The notes under the pieces: model-generated
What the model was told of the DNA's origin: nothing
Database searches by the model: none
The model's input: the letters and a program-made list of their open reading frames with translations, nothing else
Made by a program: the position numbers and the translations under genes
Assembly: GCA_006386115.1 (NCBI GenBank)
Contig: VFIW01000028.1
Coordinates: 1 to 64,000 of the forward strand
Length of the DNA stretch: 64,000 bases
DNA from: Globisporangium splendens
Lineage: Eukaryota; Oomycota; Peronosporomycetes; Pythiales; Pythiaceae
Reading direction: 5' to 3'
Shown: piece after piece, positions 27,085 through 35,123 of the stretch
Layout: every line of letters starts with the position of its first letter
Position numbering within the stretch: position 1 is the first letter of the stretch

Positions 27085-28494
27085 ATGGCGCCGCACTTTG
27101 CGTCTTCCTCGTCGTCGGTCTCCGAGTCCAGCAGCAGCCACATGGACGCGACTACCGCCGCTGACACCAATGCTGCCGGAGCTGCTGGACAAGCTCCAGC
27201 CAAGTCGCCCACGGCGTCGTCTGCGTCCACGGCGTCGTCTTCGACGCACAGGAACCGCCAGTCGGTCATGACCAAGCCCGTGCCCAGCCGCACGCACAGC
27301 ATGCCGCAGGTGTTCCGGTCGTTCTCCAAGGGCTCGGAGCACTCGTTGTCGCGGTCGTCGCTCGTGCCAGGCGGCACGCGCAGCGCCACGCGACAGAACG
27401 ATCCGCAGTGGCTGACGACCCAAGTCATGGACCGCGGCCTCTTTCGCAAGTTTGAAGAAGTGAGCGAAGAGCTCGCGAGACTCAATCGGCTGTCGTCCCA
27501 GTTGGAGACGCCGCCGATTGGCAACAACCCCGAGATCGAGCAGGTCCAGGGCGAGCTCCGACGCATGCAGCGCAGCTCCAGCATGGTGCTCCGGTCCCAG
27601 AAGGAGCTCCAAGAGAAGATCGAGCGCCAGGAGCGCAACTCGTTCCGAAGGTTCTTTACGTTCAACCGCGACCAAAAGATCGAGAAGCTCAAGCTCAAGC
27701 TCTGCGAGAAGATGTCCGAGTCGCTGCAGATCGACGCCGAGGTGCAGCATCTCGAGCGCAAGTCGGACTCGCTGCTCACAGACTGGCGCGCGTCCGTGTG
27801 CTCGTCCAGCAACCAGGCCGATGAAGCCAACCTCGCCGAGAAGATGGTCGAGCTCGAGCGCGAGAAGCAGGATATCCTGCGTTGCCTGTTCAGTTCACTG
27901 AGCATGCCGGACCCGAGCGCTACGCAGCTCCAGTCGCGCATCGCGATGTGCACGTCGGAGGTCAAGGCGTGCGAGTCTGTCAAGAAACAGGTCGAGAAGA
28001 TCACGTCATTGTACCGGAACGCACTCCAGTTGCTGCGCGCGGCGCTCGCGACCGTCGTCTCGGACGACTACACGGGTTCGGTCCGCGAATTTGCGAACGG
28101 TCCGTTCCCGTTCACCATTGAAGCCGGCCAGCTGATCGAAGCCTCGCGGAACTTTGTGCAGCCGGAGGCACGTCGACGGTACCGCGATTTCACACCCGAG
28201 CTGGTCAACGTGCACCCGCCAAAGTTCCCGCAAGCGATCGCGGACTTTGCGCGTCGCTCAAGAACGCACTATGACCCAAACAGCGCGCTCGCGATCGACG
28301 CGTCGCGAAGACTCGAAGCCGGCGAGAACGTGATCGTGCTCACGCACCGCATCGTGATCCAGAAGCTCGAGGTGCTGGAGCAGTGGAGCAAGACCGTCGA
28401 GGCGGACCAGGACCGCGCCGTCAAGGAGCAGCGGCGGCTAGAGGTCAAGCTGCAGCAGCGCATGGCGCTGCTCGCGCGTTCTGTGTCCGTGTAG
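27085..28494 (+). CDS. Coiled-coil protein of unknown function
   Basis: A single exon encodes 469 residues. Residues 1-110 are Ser/Ala/Thr-rich and probably disordered. Residues 120-260 form charged coiled coil with a distinctive NSFRRFFTFNRDQKIEKLKLKL segment interrupting it. A second helical part (260-340) and a C-terminal region with FTPELVNVHPPKFPQAI and a final coiled coil follow. No signal peptide or membrane segment is present. Strong third-position GC bias over the whole frame supports a real gene. I do not recognise the family; a cytoskeletal or cortical scaffold is possible but not shown. Confidence 0.8.
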   Translation: MAPHFASSSSSVSESSSSHMDATTAADTNAAGAAGQAPAKSPTASSASTASSSTHRNRQSVMTKPVPSRTHSMPQVFRSFSKGSEHSLSRSSLVPGGTRSATRQNDPQWLTTQVMDRGLFRKFEEVSEELARLNRLSSQLETPPIGNNPEIEQVQGELRRMQRSSSMVLRSQKELQEKIERQERNSFRRFFTFNRDQKIEKLKLKLCEKMSESLQIDAEVQHLERKSDSLLTDWRASVCSSSNQADEANLAEKMVELEREKQDILRCLFSSLSMPDPSATQLQSRIAMCTSEVKACESVKKQVEKITSLYRNALQLLRAALATVVSDDYTGSVREFANGPFPFTIEAGQLIEASRNFVQPEARRRYRDFTPELVNVHPPKFPQAIADFARRSRTHYDPNSALAIDASRRLEAGENVIVLTHRIVIQKLEVLEQWSKTVEADQDRAVKEQRRLEVKLQQRMALLARSVSV

Positions 28495-28859: not shown

Positions 28860-31800
28860 TCAATTCCATTCGCCCATGTTGACATTGTCACCGCTCGACG
28901 GATCCATGTCTTGGTCTCGGTAGTGGCGACCTAGCAAGTGCGACTGGTAGTCCTGGTTCGTCAGGATAGACCGCGAGTGCTGCTGCTGTTGTTGTTGCTG
29001 TTGCTGCTGTTGCTGCTGTTGTTGTTGGTGGAGCTCGCTCGCAAACATGTGCTGGTGCTGGTGGTGCTGCTGTTGGTGGCTCGCGATCTGCGAGCCGTAG
29101 ACGTCGTGGGAATGCATCACCTGGTGGTGGCCGTGCTGCTGGCTGTCATCGCCGTAGTACGAGCGCTGCTGTTGCTGCGTCCCTCGCGTATCGTTCGAGG
29201 TCAAAAACGGAGAGGAGCGAAGCGAGTTGGAGCTGGAAAGCCCACTCGACCCAGCTCCGACAAAATGCGAGTTGAGACCCCCGCCCATGTTTCCATGGCT
29301 TCCAGTCAAGTCGTGGCCATGATGAGACCGCATCACATCATTCGAGGTCATGTGAGATTGGTGCAGATGCTGCTGCAGGTCCATGCCCATGTGCGACTGC
29401 TGGGTATGATCGTAGAGGTCTTGGGTGCCGCCCAATCCGGACATCGAAATGCCCTTTTGCACGTCGCCATACAACGGATGCTGCATCTGTCGCTGCGTCT
29501 GTGTCACATGTTGTTGTTGTTGCTGCTGCTGCTGTTGAGCGTGCTGCATCGTCTGCTGCTGTGGTTGAAGATGGAGTGGTGCCTGATGCTGTTGATTGAG
29601 CTGCTGGTGGGCGTGCGTCAACATCTGCAGATGAGACGCGTTAGACGAGTGGTGCACTTGCTGCTGCAGTTGGCTTGGAAGCTGAGGAGCTGCTTGCGTT
29701 TGTTGCTGCGGTGGCGAGTGCAGGTTTAGGTCCTTACCACGGCTAACTGGATGGGACTGAGTGGCTCGTTGGAACTGGTGCACCTGCGACTGGTGCATCT
29801 GCTGCTGCTGAAGTTGAGGTGGTTGTTGAGGTGGCAATGACATCGTTTGCTTTGGCTGCTTTGGTTGCTTCGGTTGCTTTGGCTGAGGAGGCTGCTTTGG
29901 CTGAGGTGGCTGCTGGGGTGGAGCACTCTTGCGTTGCATCTGCTGCTGTTTAAGCACTTCCAATGCTTGGTTGAGGAACGCATTCTGCTCTTCCTCCTGC
30001 TGCTGACGCTCGTGATCAGACTGCTGTTGCTGCAAGGTAGGACCCGTGTACTTGGCCGGCGGCGGCACGCTTTGCTTCTCCTTTTGCTTCGTTGGCTTTC
30101 TCTGTGGAGCCGCAATCGGCTGCTGCGAAAACGTCGGCAGCTGCTGAGGGACGATCCGATGCTGAAAAGATGATACCTCGGGCTCGTTGTGAACAGAGTA
30201 GGAAGAATGGTTGAGCTCCACGCGCTGCTGCTGCTGGAAGTTAGACTGAAACATCGGCTCCGGGTGGGATCCAACCGCAGGCAACTGCGGCTGTTGAGTC
30301 TCTTGCTGCTGCTGCAGATCAAGGAGATGACCCTGATCCACTTGTCCCGAGCTTCCCGAATACTGCTGTCGCTCTTCGCTAAAGTGGGGAAACTTGTTCT
30401 GGGCTGCAGTGTCCTGAACCACCGGTTTCGGTGCAGCAGGGGGTTCCACATTCACTATTGCTGGTTCAAAGGATGGTGCCGGCACAGGCTCCGGCACACT
30501 TGGTGGAGGCATCAAATTGACTACAGTAGGTTGGCTTTCAACGACGGCATTCTTGACTTCACTTGTTGTATCGGCATCGTTGAGAATAGCATCATGACCC
30601 ATATACTTCACAGGAGCTTCGGACGGCTCGTCAGGAGTAAGGTCGGCAAGCGTAGCACTGGCTTCGTTCAAAGGAATGTCTTCGGTGGTATCTTCTTGCT
30701 CCACCTTCGACTTGGCTTCAATGTTTTCGACTGGCAACGACGACTGAGAAACAGGCTGCTCAGGGACTGGCTCCGCAGCAGGTGACTCCTCGGCAACCGC
30801 TTCTTTTTCGTTTACCTGCTCTGGAGTCGCGACCGCATCAACAACAGGAGGGTCTTCCAAGCGCTGCTTCTTTTGCTCTGGTTCTTCAGTTTCCTGCCCC
30901 TCGATTTGCTCTTCCTGTTGCGGCGGCTCCTCATCCTCTTTTTCTTCTATACTGTCTTCGATTTCTTCATCTTCCAGTTTGCTCTCATCGTCCTCTTCTC
31001 CTTTCATTGGGCGGCACTTCTGATACAGAAGGTCGGTCAAGTCAATAATCTCTTGGCTCAAGTGCTCTTCTCGGGCGATCTTCAGCACGCCAGCGAGCGT
31101 TTTTCTAGTGTTCGCGCGATTTATTCTGATCGTAGTCATATTTACTTCGTAGTTTGCGATCTGTCGCTCAATCAAGCGTCGAGATGGCGGGATCTTCACT
31201 CTCGAGAAGAGCGCAGGAGTCGATGGTTTCTTCGGCAAGCCTGCCAAGTCCCGAGGTCGCTTCGTTCCAATAGTGATCAACGTTTCTTGCAAGCTTGACG
31301 TCATTTTCTCAAAGTGGGCTTCCATCTTCGCCCACTCGTTAATGGACTTTGCGATAGTGCGCAGTTTGTCCAAGAGAACAGTGTACAGAAGTTGGTCACT
31401 GCTCGTCGTCATTTGCTTCGTGTTCAGTCGATACGACGGAACAAACAAGTTGTTGATATTTGACGAGCGAATGAAGTTTCGGCGATGGATGATACTCTCG
31501 AGAATCACATGGTTAAGCTGAATCTTCTGCTTGCACTTCTGCAAGTCCTGGTCGTACTTTTCGATGAGATCGGCGACCTTTGTCACAGCACTCGCTTCAG
31601 TGGTCCGCGCTTCTTCCAGCTGCATGAGCTCTGCCTCCACCACACGCAAACGCTTTTCCGTGCGTGCTGACAAGGCGCTCGTCGTTTGCTTGAACTGGGC
31701 TTGCGAAGACAGGATCTGGTGACGCAAGTCAAAGATCTTGACCAGCGCGTCAACTTCAGATGTGCGAGACGAAGAGCCGCCAGTCGACACAGCTTCTTCG

Positions 31801-33666
31801 TCCGCTTCGTCGTCATCGATCGTCTCTTTTGTTGCCTCTAAGATCTCACGGTTGCCGCTCTCAACCAATTGAACGAGAAGAGTTTTCGAGAGGTGCACCA
31901 GAGTTGCGCCGGTACTGTTAGCGATTATGTTCTGCACGTAAAAAACACACACACACAATAAGAAATGCAAAAGTGGCGTGAGTATATGCGCCGCGAATGC
32001 TTACTAGACCAACCAGAGGTCGAATATTGCTTACCATACGATTCTTGCGGCTTGAAACTTCTTCAATCAACGAATCGATCAGCACCAAGAACTTTTCTTC
32101 GGGCTGTTGAGGCACAAGACATGAAGCTGTAAGGCTATGGGGTCTTGATGATAAAAGGAGCTATGCACTGAAAACTCACCGAAGATGGAGTCACGCGTTC
32201 CGCAACAACAGCAACAACTTGGTCGTTGCCTTTCTCCTCTGCAGGTTCAGCATCAGTGGTCTCCACACCATCGGTCTCAGAAGTGCCAGTCTCTGCTTTG
32301 TCTGCAACTTGCTCCTCCTCTCGTAGACCTTCAGCTACCTCGGTACCCTCATCAGCCGTCGCGATAGGCTCTTGGGTCTCGATTGCTGCGGTCCTCTCCT
32401 CACTTGCCGCACCCTCTTTCGCAGACAGCAAGGATTCATCATTATCATCGTCACGCATCGCGGTGTCCTCTGCGTCGAGGCTGGACACATCGATCGGACT
32501 CTCCTCCAGTTCCTTCTTCAATGGGTCTTTCTCAGTCGCCACAGTTTTCGCTTTAGCAGCAGCCTCGATTTTCTCTACGAGAATGCGACGCGTCTGCTGC
32601 AAAAACTCCAAGATACCATTCGCTTGGCTCGTCAAGCATTTGTCGCAAAACCATGGCGTCGACGGCGACTACAAAGACGAGGACACACAAAATGTAAGTC
32701 TACATCGGTATTAGCAGAGCGTTTGTGCGATTTTACCAAAATATACCTCGCTCAATGCCGGTTGCGCGCACTTCAAGTGCGTCTTCCCCTGACACGCACT
32801 GCACACTGCTGCATCTGCCGTCGCTTCCTTGCGGCACACTGGACATTTCTACATTGAACAGCAACGACCGATTGGTTTAGCTCTCTCGTCGGTCACACAA
32901 ACTTGCAAGCAGCACTAGTGACGGACTTACCGGGATGACAACGAGCCGCGAGATCTCTACCGCAGCGTTCACGAGCCGGTCTTTGGACGTCGGCGTCGCG
33001 CTCGGTGCAGCGACCAGTTTCTTTTCCTTCGACGTCGTGCGCGAGTTCGGGCCGCGCTTACGAATGTTCAGCCGGTCCTTGATGTCTTTCAGACTCTCGC
33101 CCGACGCCGCCGAAAACATCGACGACCAGCCCGCATCCGTCTTCAACGCTGCAAGAAAAGAACAAACACAAAAACACGAGGGCATCAGCAACAACAGGAT
33201 AACTCCACATTCACTAACCAAGAGAACTTCAACACAACATACAGGGGTTGAGCGAGCGCTTCATTTGCAGCGCACACGGCACGGGGGACGTGTACACGAT
33301 GTCCTTGAAGCGGATCGAACCATCGACGAGCAGGTCCGCGTACACGCGCTTGCGGTAGTACGACACATACAGCTTCTTCGGACCTGTTCAAGGGTCATAT
33401 CACATATATAAGCCTTCTCTCCGCGTATGCACTCGCATACACATGCAAATAGACAGCGGTACCTGGAACGAGGAGGTTCTCCTCAATGAGGGTCAGCAGC
33501 ACCGCGCGCGCGTCACCCTACAAGCCAACACACAACGGCCGAGATGCGTGAGACTATCGCAAGGAGGCAAGCGCACGCACAGAGATAAAGAGTCTCTGTG
33601 TGTGCGTCTCTGTCGCTGTGCATGATGGCGGGTCGTCATGGAGCGCGTTGTGCAACTACGTACCAT
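28860..33666 (-). CDS. RAMA-PHD chromatin protein with Gln-rich C-terminus
   Basis: Eight exons were rebuilt from phase-compatible GT-AG sites: 33666-33664 (ATG only), 33517-33463, 33383-33243, 33148-32931, 32848-32747, 32668-32180, 32103-32035 and 31931-28860, giving 1382 residues. Residues 2-80 resemble a RAMA domain (LIEENLLVPG, then VYADLLVDGSIRFKDIVYTSP, then GWSSMF), a module thought to bind modified DNA. Residues 141-184 form a C4HC3 PHD finger (CPVC, CSAC, HLKC, WFCDKC), which usually reads histone H3 tails. An acidic linker, a conserved helical region (about 360-640), a Glu/Pro-rich stretch and a long Gln/His-rich tail with a run of 17 Gln follow. A nuclear regulatory role is inferred. 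The ATG-only exon is the least certain part. Confidence 0.82.
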
Positions 33667-34592: not shown

Positions 34593-35123
34593 TTAAATAT
34601 CCTCGCACCACTTGTTCTCTTCGCGAATGCGCTGTTCTTCCTCGGGGGTGAACTCCTCAGTGATACCGAACGTCGCACGGATCTCTTCAGGGGTCTTGCC
34701 TTTGATCATCGTCGCGACTTTCGCGCACGCTAAATCGAGCAGACTCTTGATATCCAAGTAGTTCGCGGCGAGGATCAGCTCAAAGAGCAGCTCCTGGTCT
34801 TCCTGCTTCACTTCCACGAAGTCCGCATACCAGTCCGAGACCGCATCGCGCAAATCGTTGCTCTTGAGCGGCTTCTCCAGCTCCTTCATCGGGTGCACGT
34901 GGTGGTGCTCACAGAACGCGACCACTTTCTCGAGCACGTGCTTCTTGACATTCGGCAACGGCACTTCCTGCACGTCATCTTCGTCGGCGTCGTCCGAGAC
35001 CAGCGTGCTCACCAGTTTGCTGAGCGAGGCCACGGCGGCGTCCACTTCGTAGCTCTGGCCCTCCATCGAGACCAGCTTGACCTTGCGGCCGTCGAGAGGG
35101 GTGGTGGTAGCAGCGTCGCTCAT
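34593..35123 (-). CDS. SKP1: SKP1, SCF ubiquitin ligase adaptor
   Basis: An intronless gene encodes 176 residues. The N-terminal BTB/POZ fold (KVKLVSMEGQSYEVD) and the C-terminal Skp1 dimerisation helices (LFELILAANYLDIKSLLDLACAKVA, then GKTPEEIRATFGI and EEEQRIREENKWCED) are nearly canonical. SKP1 joins cullin-1 to F-box proteins. The ATG at 35121-35123 is the family start. A strong oomycete-type initiator lies 70 bp upstream. Confidence 0.97.
   Translation of the reverse strand: MSDAATTTPLDGRKVKLVSMEGQSYEVDAAVASLSKLVSTLVSDDADEDDVQEVPLPNVKKHVLEKVVAFCEHHHVHPMKELEKPLKSNDLRDAVSDWYADFVEVKQEDQELLFELILAANYLDIKSLLDLACAKVATMIKGKTPEEIRATFGITEEFTPEEEQRIREENKWCEDI

What the first reader, a model, noticed from the sequence alone, without database searches (positions are those of the whole stretch)
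28860..33666. RAMA-PHD-polyQ protein: candidate reader of modified adenine plus histone marks
Once the small 5' exons are spliced, an N-terminal RAMA-like domain and a C4HC3 PHD finger precede a long Gln-rich tail. RAMA is proposed to bind modified DNA, and oomycetes are reported to use N6-methyladenine with little or no 5-methylcytosine. A protein joining the two reader types would be a direct link between DNA and histone marks. I know of no description of this combination in oomycetes.
Basis: partly seen in the sequence, partly recalled or inferred. Interest (0 to 1): 0.75.

Follow-up and report, generated by a model that had tools for sequence, protein, structure and literature searches.

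The report
Oomycete RAMA-PHD chromatin protein
This is a real, intact gene for a conserved oomycete protein that joins a DNA-binding RAMA domain to a PHD zinc finger; it probably helps organise chromatin, but nothing found here shows that it reads methylated adenine.

Summary
A minus-strand gene of eight exons (33666 to 28860) encodes a 1382-residue protein with a RAMA domain (PF18755, E 3.5e-14), a C4HC3 PHD finger (PF00628, E 1.1e-5), an acidic linker, a long helical core and a Q-rich tail. A relative's full-length RAMA model matches the MPND-DNA crystal structure (E 6.9e-6, TM 0.76). Orthologues occur in Globisporangium, Pythium, Phytophthora and downy mildews, and in Aphanomyces. RAMA is 84-93% identical in 18 of 20 relatives aligned.

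The closest solved RAMA, MPND, binds DNA without sequence or 6mA preference (PMC9963953). In this genome no cytosine DNA methylase was found and only one MT-A70 gene, METTL4-like rather than the AMT1 type tied to robust eukaryotic 6mA (PMC12695648). PHD keeps its zinc ligands but lacks the aromatic position of H3K4me3 readers. Best reading: a dimeric chromatin adaptor that docks on DNA through RAMA and contacts histone through PHD. A 6mA-reading role stays possible and testable.

The parts
33664..33666 (-). coding exon 1: start codon only
   Evidence: ATG followed by GTACGT donor; several orthologues start MGDAR; splice site kept in the second copy
33463..33517 (-). exon 2: RAMA first helix (residues 2-19 and part of 20)
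   Evidence: orthologue RAMA profile hits it, E 1e-4
33243..33383 (-). exon 3: RAMA core strands and second helix (to residue 66)
   Evidence: PF18755 six-frame hit 33199-33384; orthologue profile E 1.4e-27
32931..33148 (-). exon 4: RAMA end with the GW motif and third helix (to residue 96), then basic linker (to 139)
   Evidence: orthologue profile E 5.8e-21
32747..32848 (-). exon 5: PHD finger, first six zinc ligands (residues 140-173)
32180..32668 (-). exon 6: last two PHD ligands, conserved helix after PHD, acidic linker (residues 174-336)
   Evidence: net charge -25 over residues 190-336
32035..32103 (-). exon 7: start of the helical core (residues 337-359)
28860..31931 (-). exon 8: helical (coiled-coil-like) core to about residue 690, acidic stretch, Q-rich tail, C-terminal DNVNMGEW motif shared with many orthologues, stop

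Best explanation
The gene encodes a conserved, probably nuclear and dimeric oomycete chromatin adaptor. Shown by sequence and predicted fold: RAMA domain, PHD finger with all zinc ligands, long helical core, acidic linker, Q-rich tail. Inferred: RAMA docks on the double-stranded DNA backbone, without strict sequence or methylation preference, as MPND does; PHD contacts a histone tail, more likely unmodified H3 or a surface without methyl-lysine than H3K4me3; the core pairs two copies as a coiled coil, so that one dimer can bridge DNA and nucleosomes; the acidic and Q-rich parts recruit other regulators.
For: Pfam RAMA 3.5e-14 and PHD 1.1e-5, both over cut-off. MPND is the best solved relative of RAMA by sequence (2.1e-6; profile 2.5e-8) and by fold (7ydw E 6.9e-6, TM 0.76, 31% identity over 91 columns; ten-residue block pLDDT 81-93 over residues 11-90). 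Two of MPND's three DNA-contact residues are present: S113 = S52, W135 = W74; S115 = V54 (alignment; residues from PMC9963953, chain numbering read as residue plus one); S, V, W in 19 of 20 rows that reach there. RAMA is 84-93% identical in 18 of 20 relatives, PHD 48-65% in 17 of 20, helical core 45-69% in 18 of 20. The solved PHDs closest by sequence are ORC1b, WSTF, BAZ2A/B, BHC80 and AIRE, and by fold BAZ2A/B, BHC80 and UHRF1; several of these entries are complexes with unmodified H3. Long helices 480-581, 587-645 and 673-710 in the model of P0007. MPND itself binds histones as well as DNA (abstract and Discussion of PMC9963953).
Against: No binding, localisation or expression data. PHD falls below Pfam's cut-off in 6 of the 7 RAMA-bearing orthologues scanned (20.4-23.8 bits in five, 16.0 in one, cut-off 24). 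No acidic residue stands in the two places before the first Cys, as ORC1b has, in 19 of 21 sequences, so histone binding itself is uncertain; the TAF3 PHD also matches the family profile (1.3e-3), weaker than the unmodified-H3 type. Against the nearest relative, P0001, RAMA (91%) is no more conserved than PHD (90%) or core (94%). Overall pTM is 0.26, so domain arrangement is unknown. Dimerisation is inferred from helix length alone; nuclear location was not tested. The Aphanomyces protein lacks a long Q-rich tail.
Confidence: 0.62

Rival explanations
1. It is a true 6mA reader: RAMA prefers N6-methyladenine in DNA and PHD couples this to histone state.
For: RAMA has been proposed as a 6mA-reading domain (PMC8885841 and PMC11037411, passages), and an earlier study reported 6mA-selective pull-down by MPND (cited in PMC9963953). 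In Phytophthora 6mA is reported, most DAMT enzymes were active in vitro, and DAMT knockouts in P. sojae lowered 6mA; a DAMT gene is reported in Pythium ultimum too (PMC6211444, abstract and passages), and one PF10237 gene is found here. RAMA is strongly conserved. Cytosine DNA methylase PF00145 was not found, while eight AlkB-type matches (PF13532), some perhaps haplotype pairs, were. A PHD on the p1 subunit of the AMT1 complex in ichthyosporeans is a precedent for joining adenine methylation to histone reading (PMC12695648).
Against: MPND RAMA binding was not affected by 6mA (PMC9963953). MT-A70 gives one hit in this genome even at E up to 10, METTL4-like; robust 6mA was found only in AMT1-encoding species among 18 profiled (PMC12695648 abstract), though the words Phytophthora and oomycete do not occur in that text, so no oomycete may have been tested. 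P. sojae METTL4-type mutants kept their DNA 6mA level (PMC11449341).
Confidence: 0.15
2. It is an oomycete counterpart of animal MPND by descent, whose RAMA end was kept while the MPN end was replaced by PHD, helical core and Q-rich tail.
For: RAMA closest to MPND by sequence and fold among solved proteins; the Plasmopara protein carries the name of an MPN-type proteasome subunit.
Against: No MPN/JAMM match in the window protein (E up to 1) or in the eight relatives scanned (E up to 0.1). MPND was the only RAMA among the 50 fold hits shown, so nearest-neighbour status is weak evidence of descent. No tree was built.
Confidence: 0.1
3. PHD is a degenerate structural zinc knuckle, and the protein is a DNA-bound helical scaffold without histone reading.
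For: PHD scores hover around the cut-off and its sequence drifts faster than RAMA in most relatives; neither the aromatic position nor, mostly, the acidic residues of the two common H3-binding classes are present (classes recalled).
Against: All eight zinc ligands are present in 20 of 21 sequences, Aphanomyces included; the exception, P0015, has a gene model that goes astray there. Fold matches are to histone-binding PHDs.
Confidence: 0.13

Closest known systems
MPND (animal MPN domain-containing protein; PDB 7ydt, 7ydw)
   Same: RAMA domain of the same fold (TM 0.76-0.78, 31% identity); S and W of the DNA-contact set conserved; acidic stretches near RAMA
   Different: No MPN domain here; instead PHD, helical core and Q-rich tail; third contact Ser is Val (in Aphanomyces it is Ser, but the first contact Ser is Asn)
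CcrM-type bacterial adenine methylases with a RAMA domain (as described in PMC9963953; not compared directly here)
   Same: Contain the RAMA domain family
   Different: No methylase domain here; no enzyme family passes its Pfam cut-off
H3-binding PHD proteins (ORC1b, WSTF, BAZ2A/B, BHC80, AIRE)
   Same: C4HC3 PHD; best sequence and fold matches
   Different: Acidic residues before the first Cys mostly missing; no other chromatin domain passes Pfam's cut-off here apart from RAMA
PHD-bearing p1 subunit of the AMT1 6mA writer in ichthyosporeans (PMC12695648, passages)
   Same: Joins a PHD to DNA adenine methylation
   Different: p1 is the DNA-binding partner of a writer; no AMT1-like gene was found in this genome

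Membership tests
RAMA domain (PF18755) | Profile score over the curated cut-off | tested here: met
   53.1 bits against 35.2; 7 of 8 relatives scanned also pass, the eighth (P0018) starts inside RAMA
RAMA domain (PF18755) | RAMA fold as in MPND | tested here: met
   Model of orthologue P0007: Foldseek to 7ydw_B E 6.9e-6, TM 0.76; helix, two long strands, short strands, helices. The spliced window protein itself was not folded
RAMA domain (PF18755) | DNA-contact residues known from MPND (S113, S115, W135) | tested here: inconclusive
   S52 and W74 match, V54 does not; S-V-W in 19 rows, N-S-W in Aphanomyces, one row too short
6mA reader | Preference for N6-methyladenine DNA | not testable with these tools
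   Needs binding assays; the nearest solved RAMA showed none (PMC9963953)
6mA reader | AMT1-type MT-A70 writer in the same genome | tested here: inconclusive
   None found: one MT-A70 match in 53.3 Mb even at E 10, best PDB relative 7cv6 (plant METTL4, identity recalled) 2.2e-33; METTL3 3.8e-8; 7f4r, 7yi8 (AMT1/MTA1 complexes, recalled) 7e-5 to 4e-4. Exon-by-exon search, no tree, so a split gene could be missed
PHD finger (PF00628) | Profile score over cut-off and C4HC3 ligands | tested here: met
   25.8 bits against 24; ligands in 20 of 21 sequences; 6 of 8 relatives scanned score below the cut-off
H3K4me3-reading PHD | Aromatic residue two before the ligand His (recalled CxxCxxW[FY]H motif) | tested here: not met
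   K in 17, Q in 2, R in 1, S in 1 of 21 aligned sequences
H3K4me0-reading PHD | Acidic residues just before the first Cys (as in ORC1b, shown) | tested here: inconclusive
   Absent in 19 of 21 sequences, yet best matches are PHDs of this class
MPND | RAMA plus MPN domain | tested here: not met
   No MPN/JAMM match at E up to 1 in the full protein

The most novel reading that the evidence does not exclude
The protein is the ancestral oomycete reader of N6-methyladenine: RAMA senses 6mA, and PHD with the helical core hands that signal to histones, in a lineage that seems to lack both cytosine methylation and the AMT1 writer and would therefore use a different 6mA system.
Probability: 0.14. Interest if true: 0.82.

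Novelty: new variant of a known kind. Interest (0 to 1): 0.5.

Why it matters
PMC12695648 calls finding eukaryotic 6mA readers key. This family is a strongly conserved test case in a lineage with reported 6mA and no detected cytosine methylation; it is the only RAMA detected in its genome (both hits are the two copies of this gene, a search that may miss RAMA split over exons). Either outcome is useful: a 6mA-selective RAMA would be firm evidence for a eukaryotic reader of this type; an indifferent RAMA would support the view that RAMA is a general DNA-docking domain and weaken its use as evidence for 6mA signalling.

Tried and rejected

Corrections on rechecking: an earlier count gave the contact residues as 51, 53 and 73; the right numbers are 52, 54 and 74. 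Residue counts were first made by eye and then recounted with the same result.

Full report
WHAT IS THERE. The gene lies on the minus strand. Eight exons (33666-33664, 33517-33463, 33383-33243, 33148-32931, 32848-32747, 32668-32180, 32103-32035, 31931-28860) with GT-AG introns join into 4149 bases: 1382 residues and a stop. Pfam finds RAMA at residues 5-96 (E 3.5e-14) and PHD at 141-184 (E 1.1e-5), both over the curated cut-offs; no other family passes its cut-off. A profile of nine orthologous RAMA domains (none from Globisporangium) hits exactly three of 2084 six-frame pieces of the window, those holding exons 2, 3 and 4, in order. A second copy on contig C167, 98.3% identical over 7.8 kb including flanks and most likely the other haplotype, keeps every splice site and codes for 1379 residues, with 16 substitutions and three missing residues, none in RAMA or PHD.

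RELATIVES. The first search (residues 1-700) gave 24 proteins, 18 with RAMA and 13 with PHD listed, 12 with both; the 20 that bear a name are all oomycetes, the nearest from Globisporangium ultimum at 89%. The species of the window is therefore probably a Globisporangium. Proteins without RAMA include truncated models such as P0018, which starts inside RAMA. A RAMA-only search gave 19 proteins of 83 candidates, one of them new: Aphanomyces astaci P0025, with RAMA over the cut-off (42.4) and PHD just under it (23.8 against 24). It shares RAMA (47%), PHD ligands and helical core (25% over 345 residues), so the architecture probably predates the split of the Saprolegnia and Peronospora lines; it has no long Q-rich tail, though its gene model may be incomplete. 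Identity to the window protein among 20 relatives: RAMA 84-93% in 18 (P0018 has only 20 residues of it, Aphanomyces 47%); PHD 48-65% in 17 (P0018 82%, P0001 90%, Aphanomyces 25%); helical core 45-69% in 18 (P0001 94%, Aphanomyces 25%); acidic linker 8-23% in 19 (P0001 72%). Outside the same genus RAMA is thus the most constrained part.

FOLD. A model of the G. ultimum protein, whose annotation lacks the first RAMA helix, matched MPND weakly (E 8.1e-3). A model of the P. kernoviae protein with complete RAMA (block pLDDT 81-93 over residues 11-90) matches the MPND-DNA complex at E 6.9e-6, TM 0.76, 31% identity over 91 columns. PHD matches BAZ2A/B, BHC80 and UHRF1 fingers, at E 4e-3 and above. 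The core is long helices; overall pTM is 0.26 in both models, so relative placement is unknown.

DNA CONTACTS. In MPND, S113, S115 and W135 hydrogen-bond to the DNA backbone and mutants almost lose binding; no base contact was seen, and 6mA did not affect binding (PMC9963953, Results 2.1-2.5 and Discussion read; Results 2.6 and Methods not read). By the alignment these are S52, V54 and W74 here; 19 of 20 rows that reach there keep S-V-W, Aphanomyces has N-S-W. The RAMA region is basic (net +10 over residues 1-110). DNA docking is therefore likely; methyl reading has no sequence support of its own.

HISTONE SIDE. All eight zinc ligands stand in 20 of 21 sequences; the exception, P0015, has a gene model that goes astray there. 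The position that is Trp in H3K4me3 readers (recalled) is K, Q, R or S in all 21. The nearest solved PHDs are mostly of the unmodified-H3 type, but acidic residues before the first Cys, as in ORC1b, are lacking in 19 of 21, and 6 of 8 relatives score below Pfam's PHD cut-off. Histone contact is plausible, its specificity open.

IS THERE 6mA TO READ? In this 53.3 Mb genome: no PF00145 cytosine methylase, no PF01555, one MT-A70 gene whose best solved relative is 7cv6 (E 2.2e-33; that this is plant METTL4 is recalled), one PF10237 gene, eight AlkB-type matches, and this gene as the only RAMA detected. These searches read exon by exon and could miss split genes. PMC6211444 (abstract and passages) reports 6mA, no 5mC and active DAMT enzymes in Phytophthora, with knockouts lowering 6mA. 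Against a general 6mA system stand PMC12695648 (abstract and passages: robust 6mA only with AMT1 among 18 species; METTL4 role unclear; no mention of oomycetes), PMC11449341 (passages: METTL4-type mutants of P. sojae keep DNA 6mA) and PMC10238732 (passages: N6AMT2 is an eEF1A lysine methyltransferase; that it belongs to PF10237 is recalled). Whether Globisporangium has 6mA to read is open.

CONCLUSION. A real, conserved oomycete protein family with an architecture for which I found no paper (listings only). Public databases already list both domains on orthologues, so the combination is recorded though, as far as I could see, not discussed. Most likely a DNA- and histone-contacting chromatin adaptor; 6mA reading is a minority hypothesis that a simple binding assay would settle.

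Noticed in passing
34593-35123 (-): Skp1 homologue (PF01466 2.2e-26, PF03931 4.1e-18) just upstream on the same strand.
   Followed up: yes
27088-28491 (+): 468-aa reading frame with no Pfam match at E 0.01, convergent with the RAMA-PHD gene.
   Followed up: partly
33666-32669, compared with G000:C167 (L006): No difference between the two copies across the first 998 bases of the gene, five introns included, against 58 substitutions in the remaining 3809 bases: loss of heterozygosity, gene conversion or assembly collapse.
   Followed up: partly
window protein residues 1316-1328, exon 8: The histidine/glutamine-rich stretch is three residues shorter in the second copy.
   Followed up: no
P0001, P0010, P0018: Public gene models look faulty or oddly named: G. 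ultimum lacks the first RAMA helix, [Pythium] brassicae (partial) starts inside RAMA, and Plasmopara is called RPN11, perhaps by RAMA similarity to MPND.
   Followed up: partly
L003 (G000:C140:72776-73300): The only MT-A70 match of the genome is METTL4-like.
   Followed up: yes
BFVD M4QMU8: An unnamed viral protein of 128 residues matches the P. kernoviae model at E 1.1e-5 over 100 columns, possibly a viral RAMA domain.
   Followed up: no
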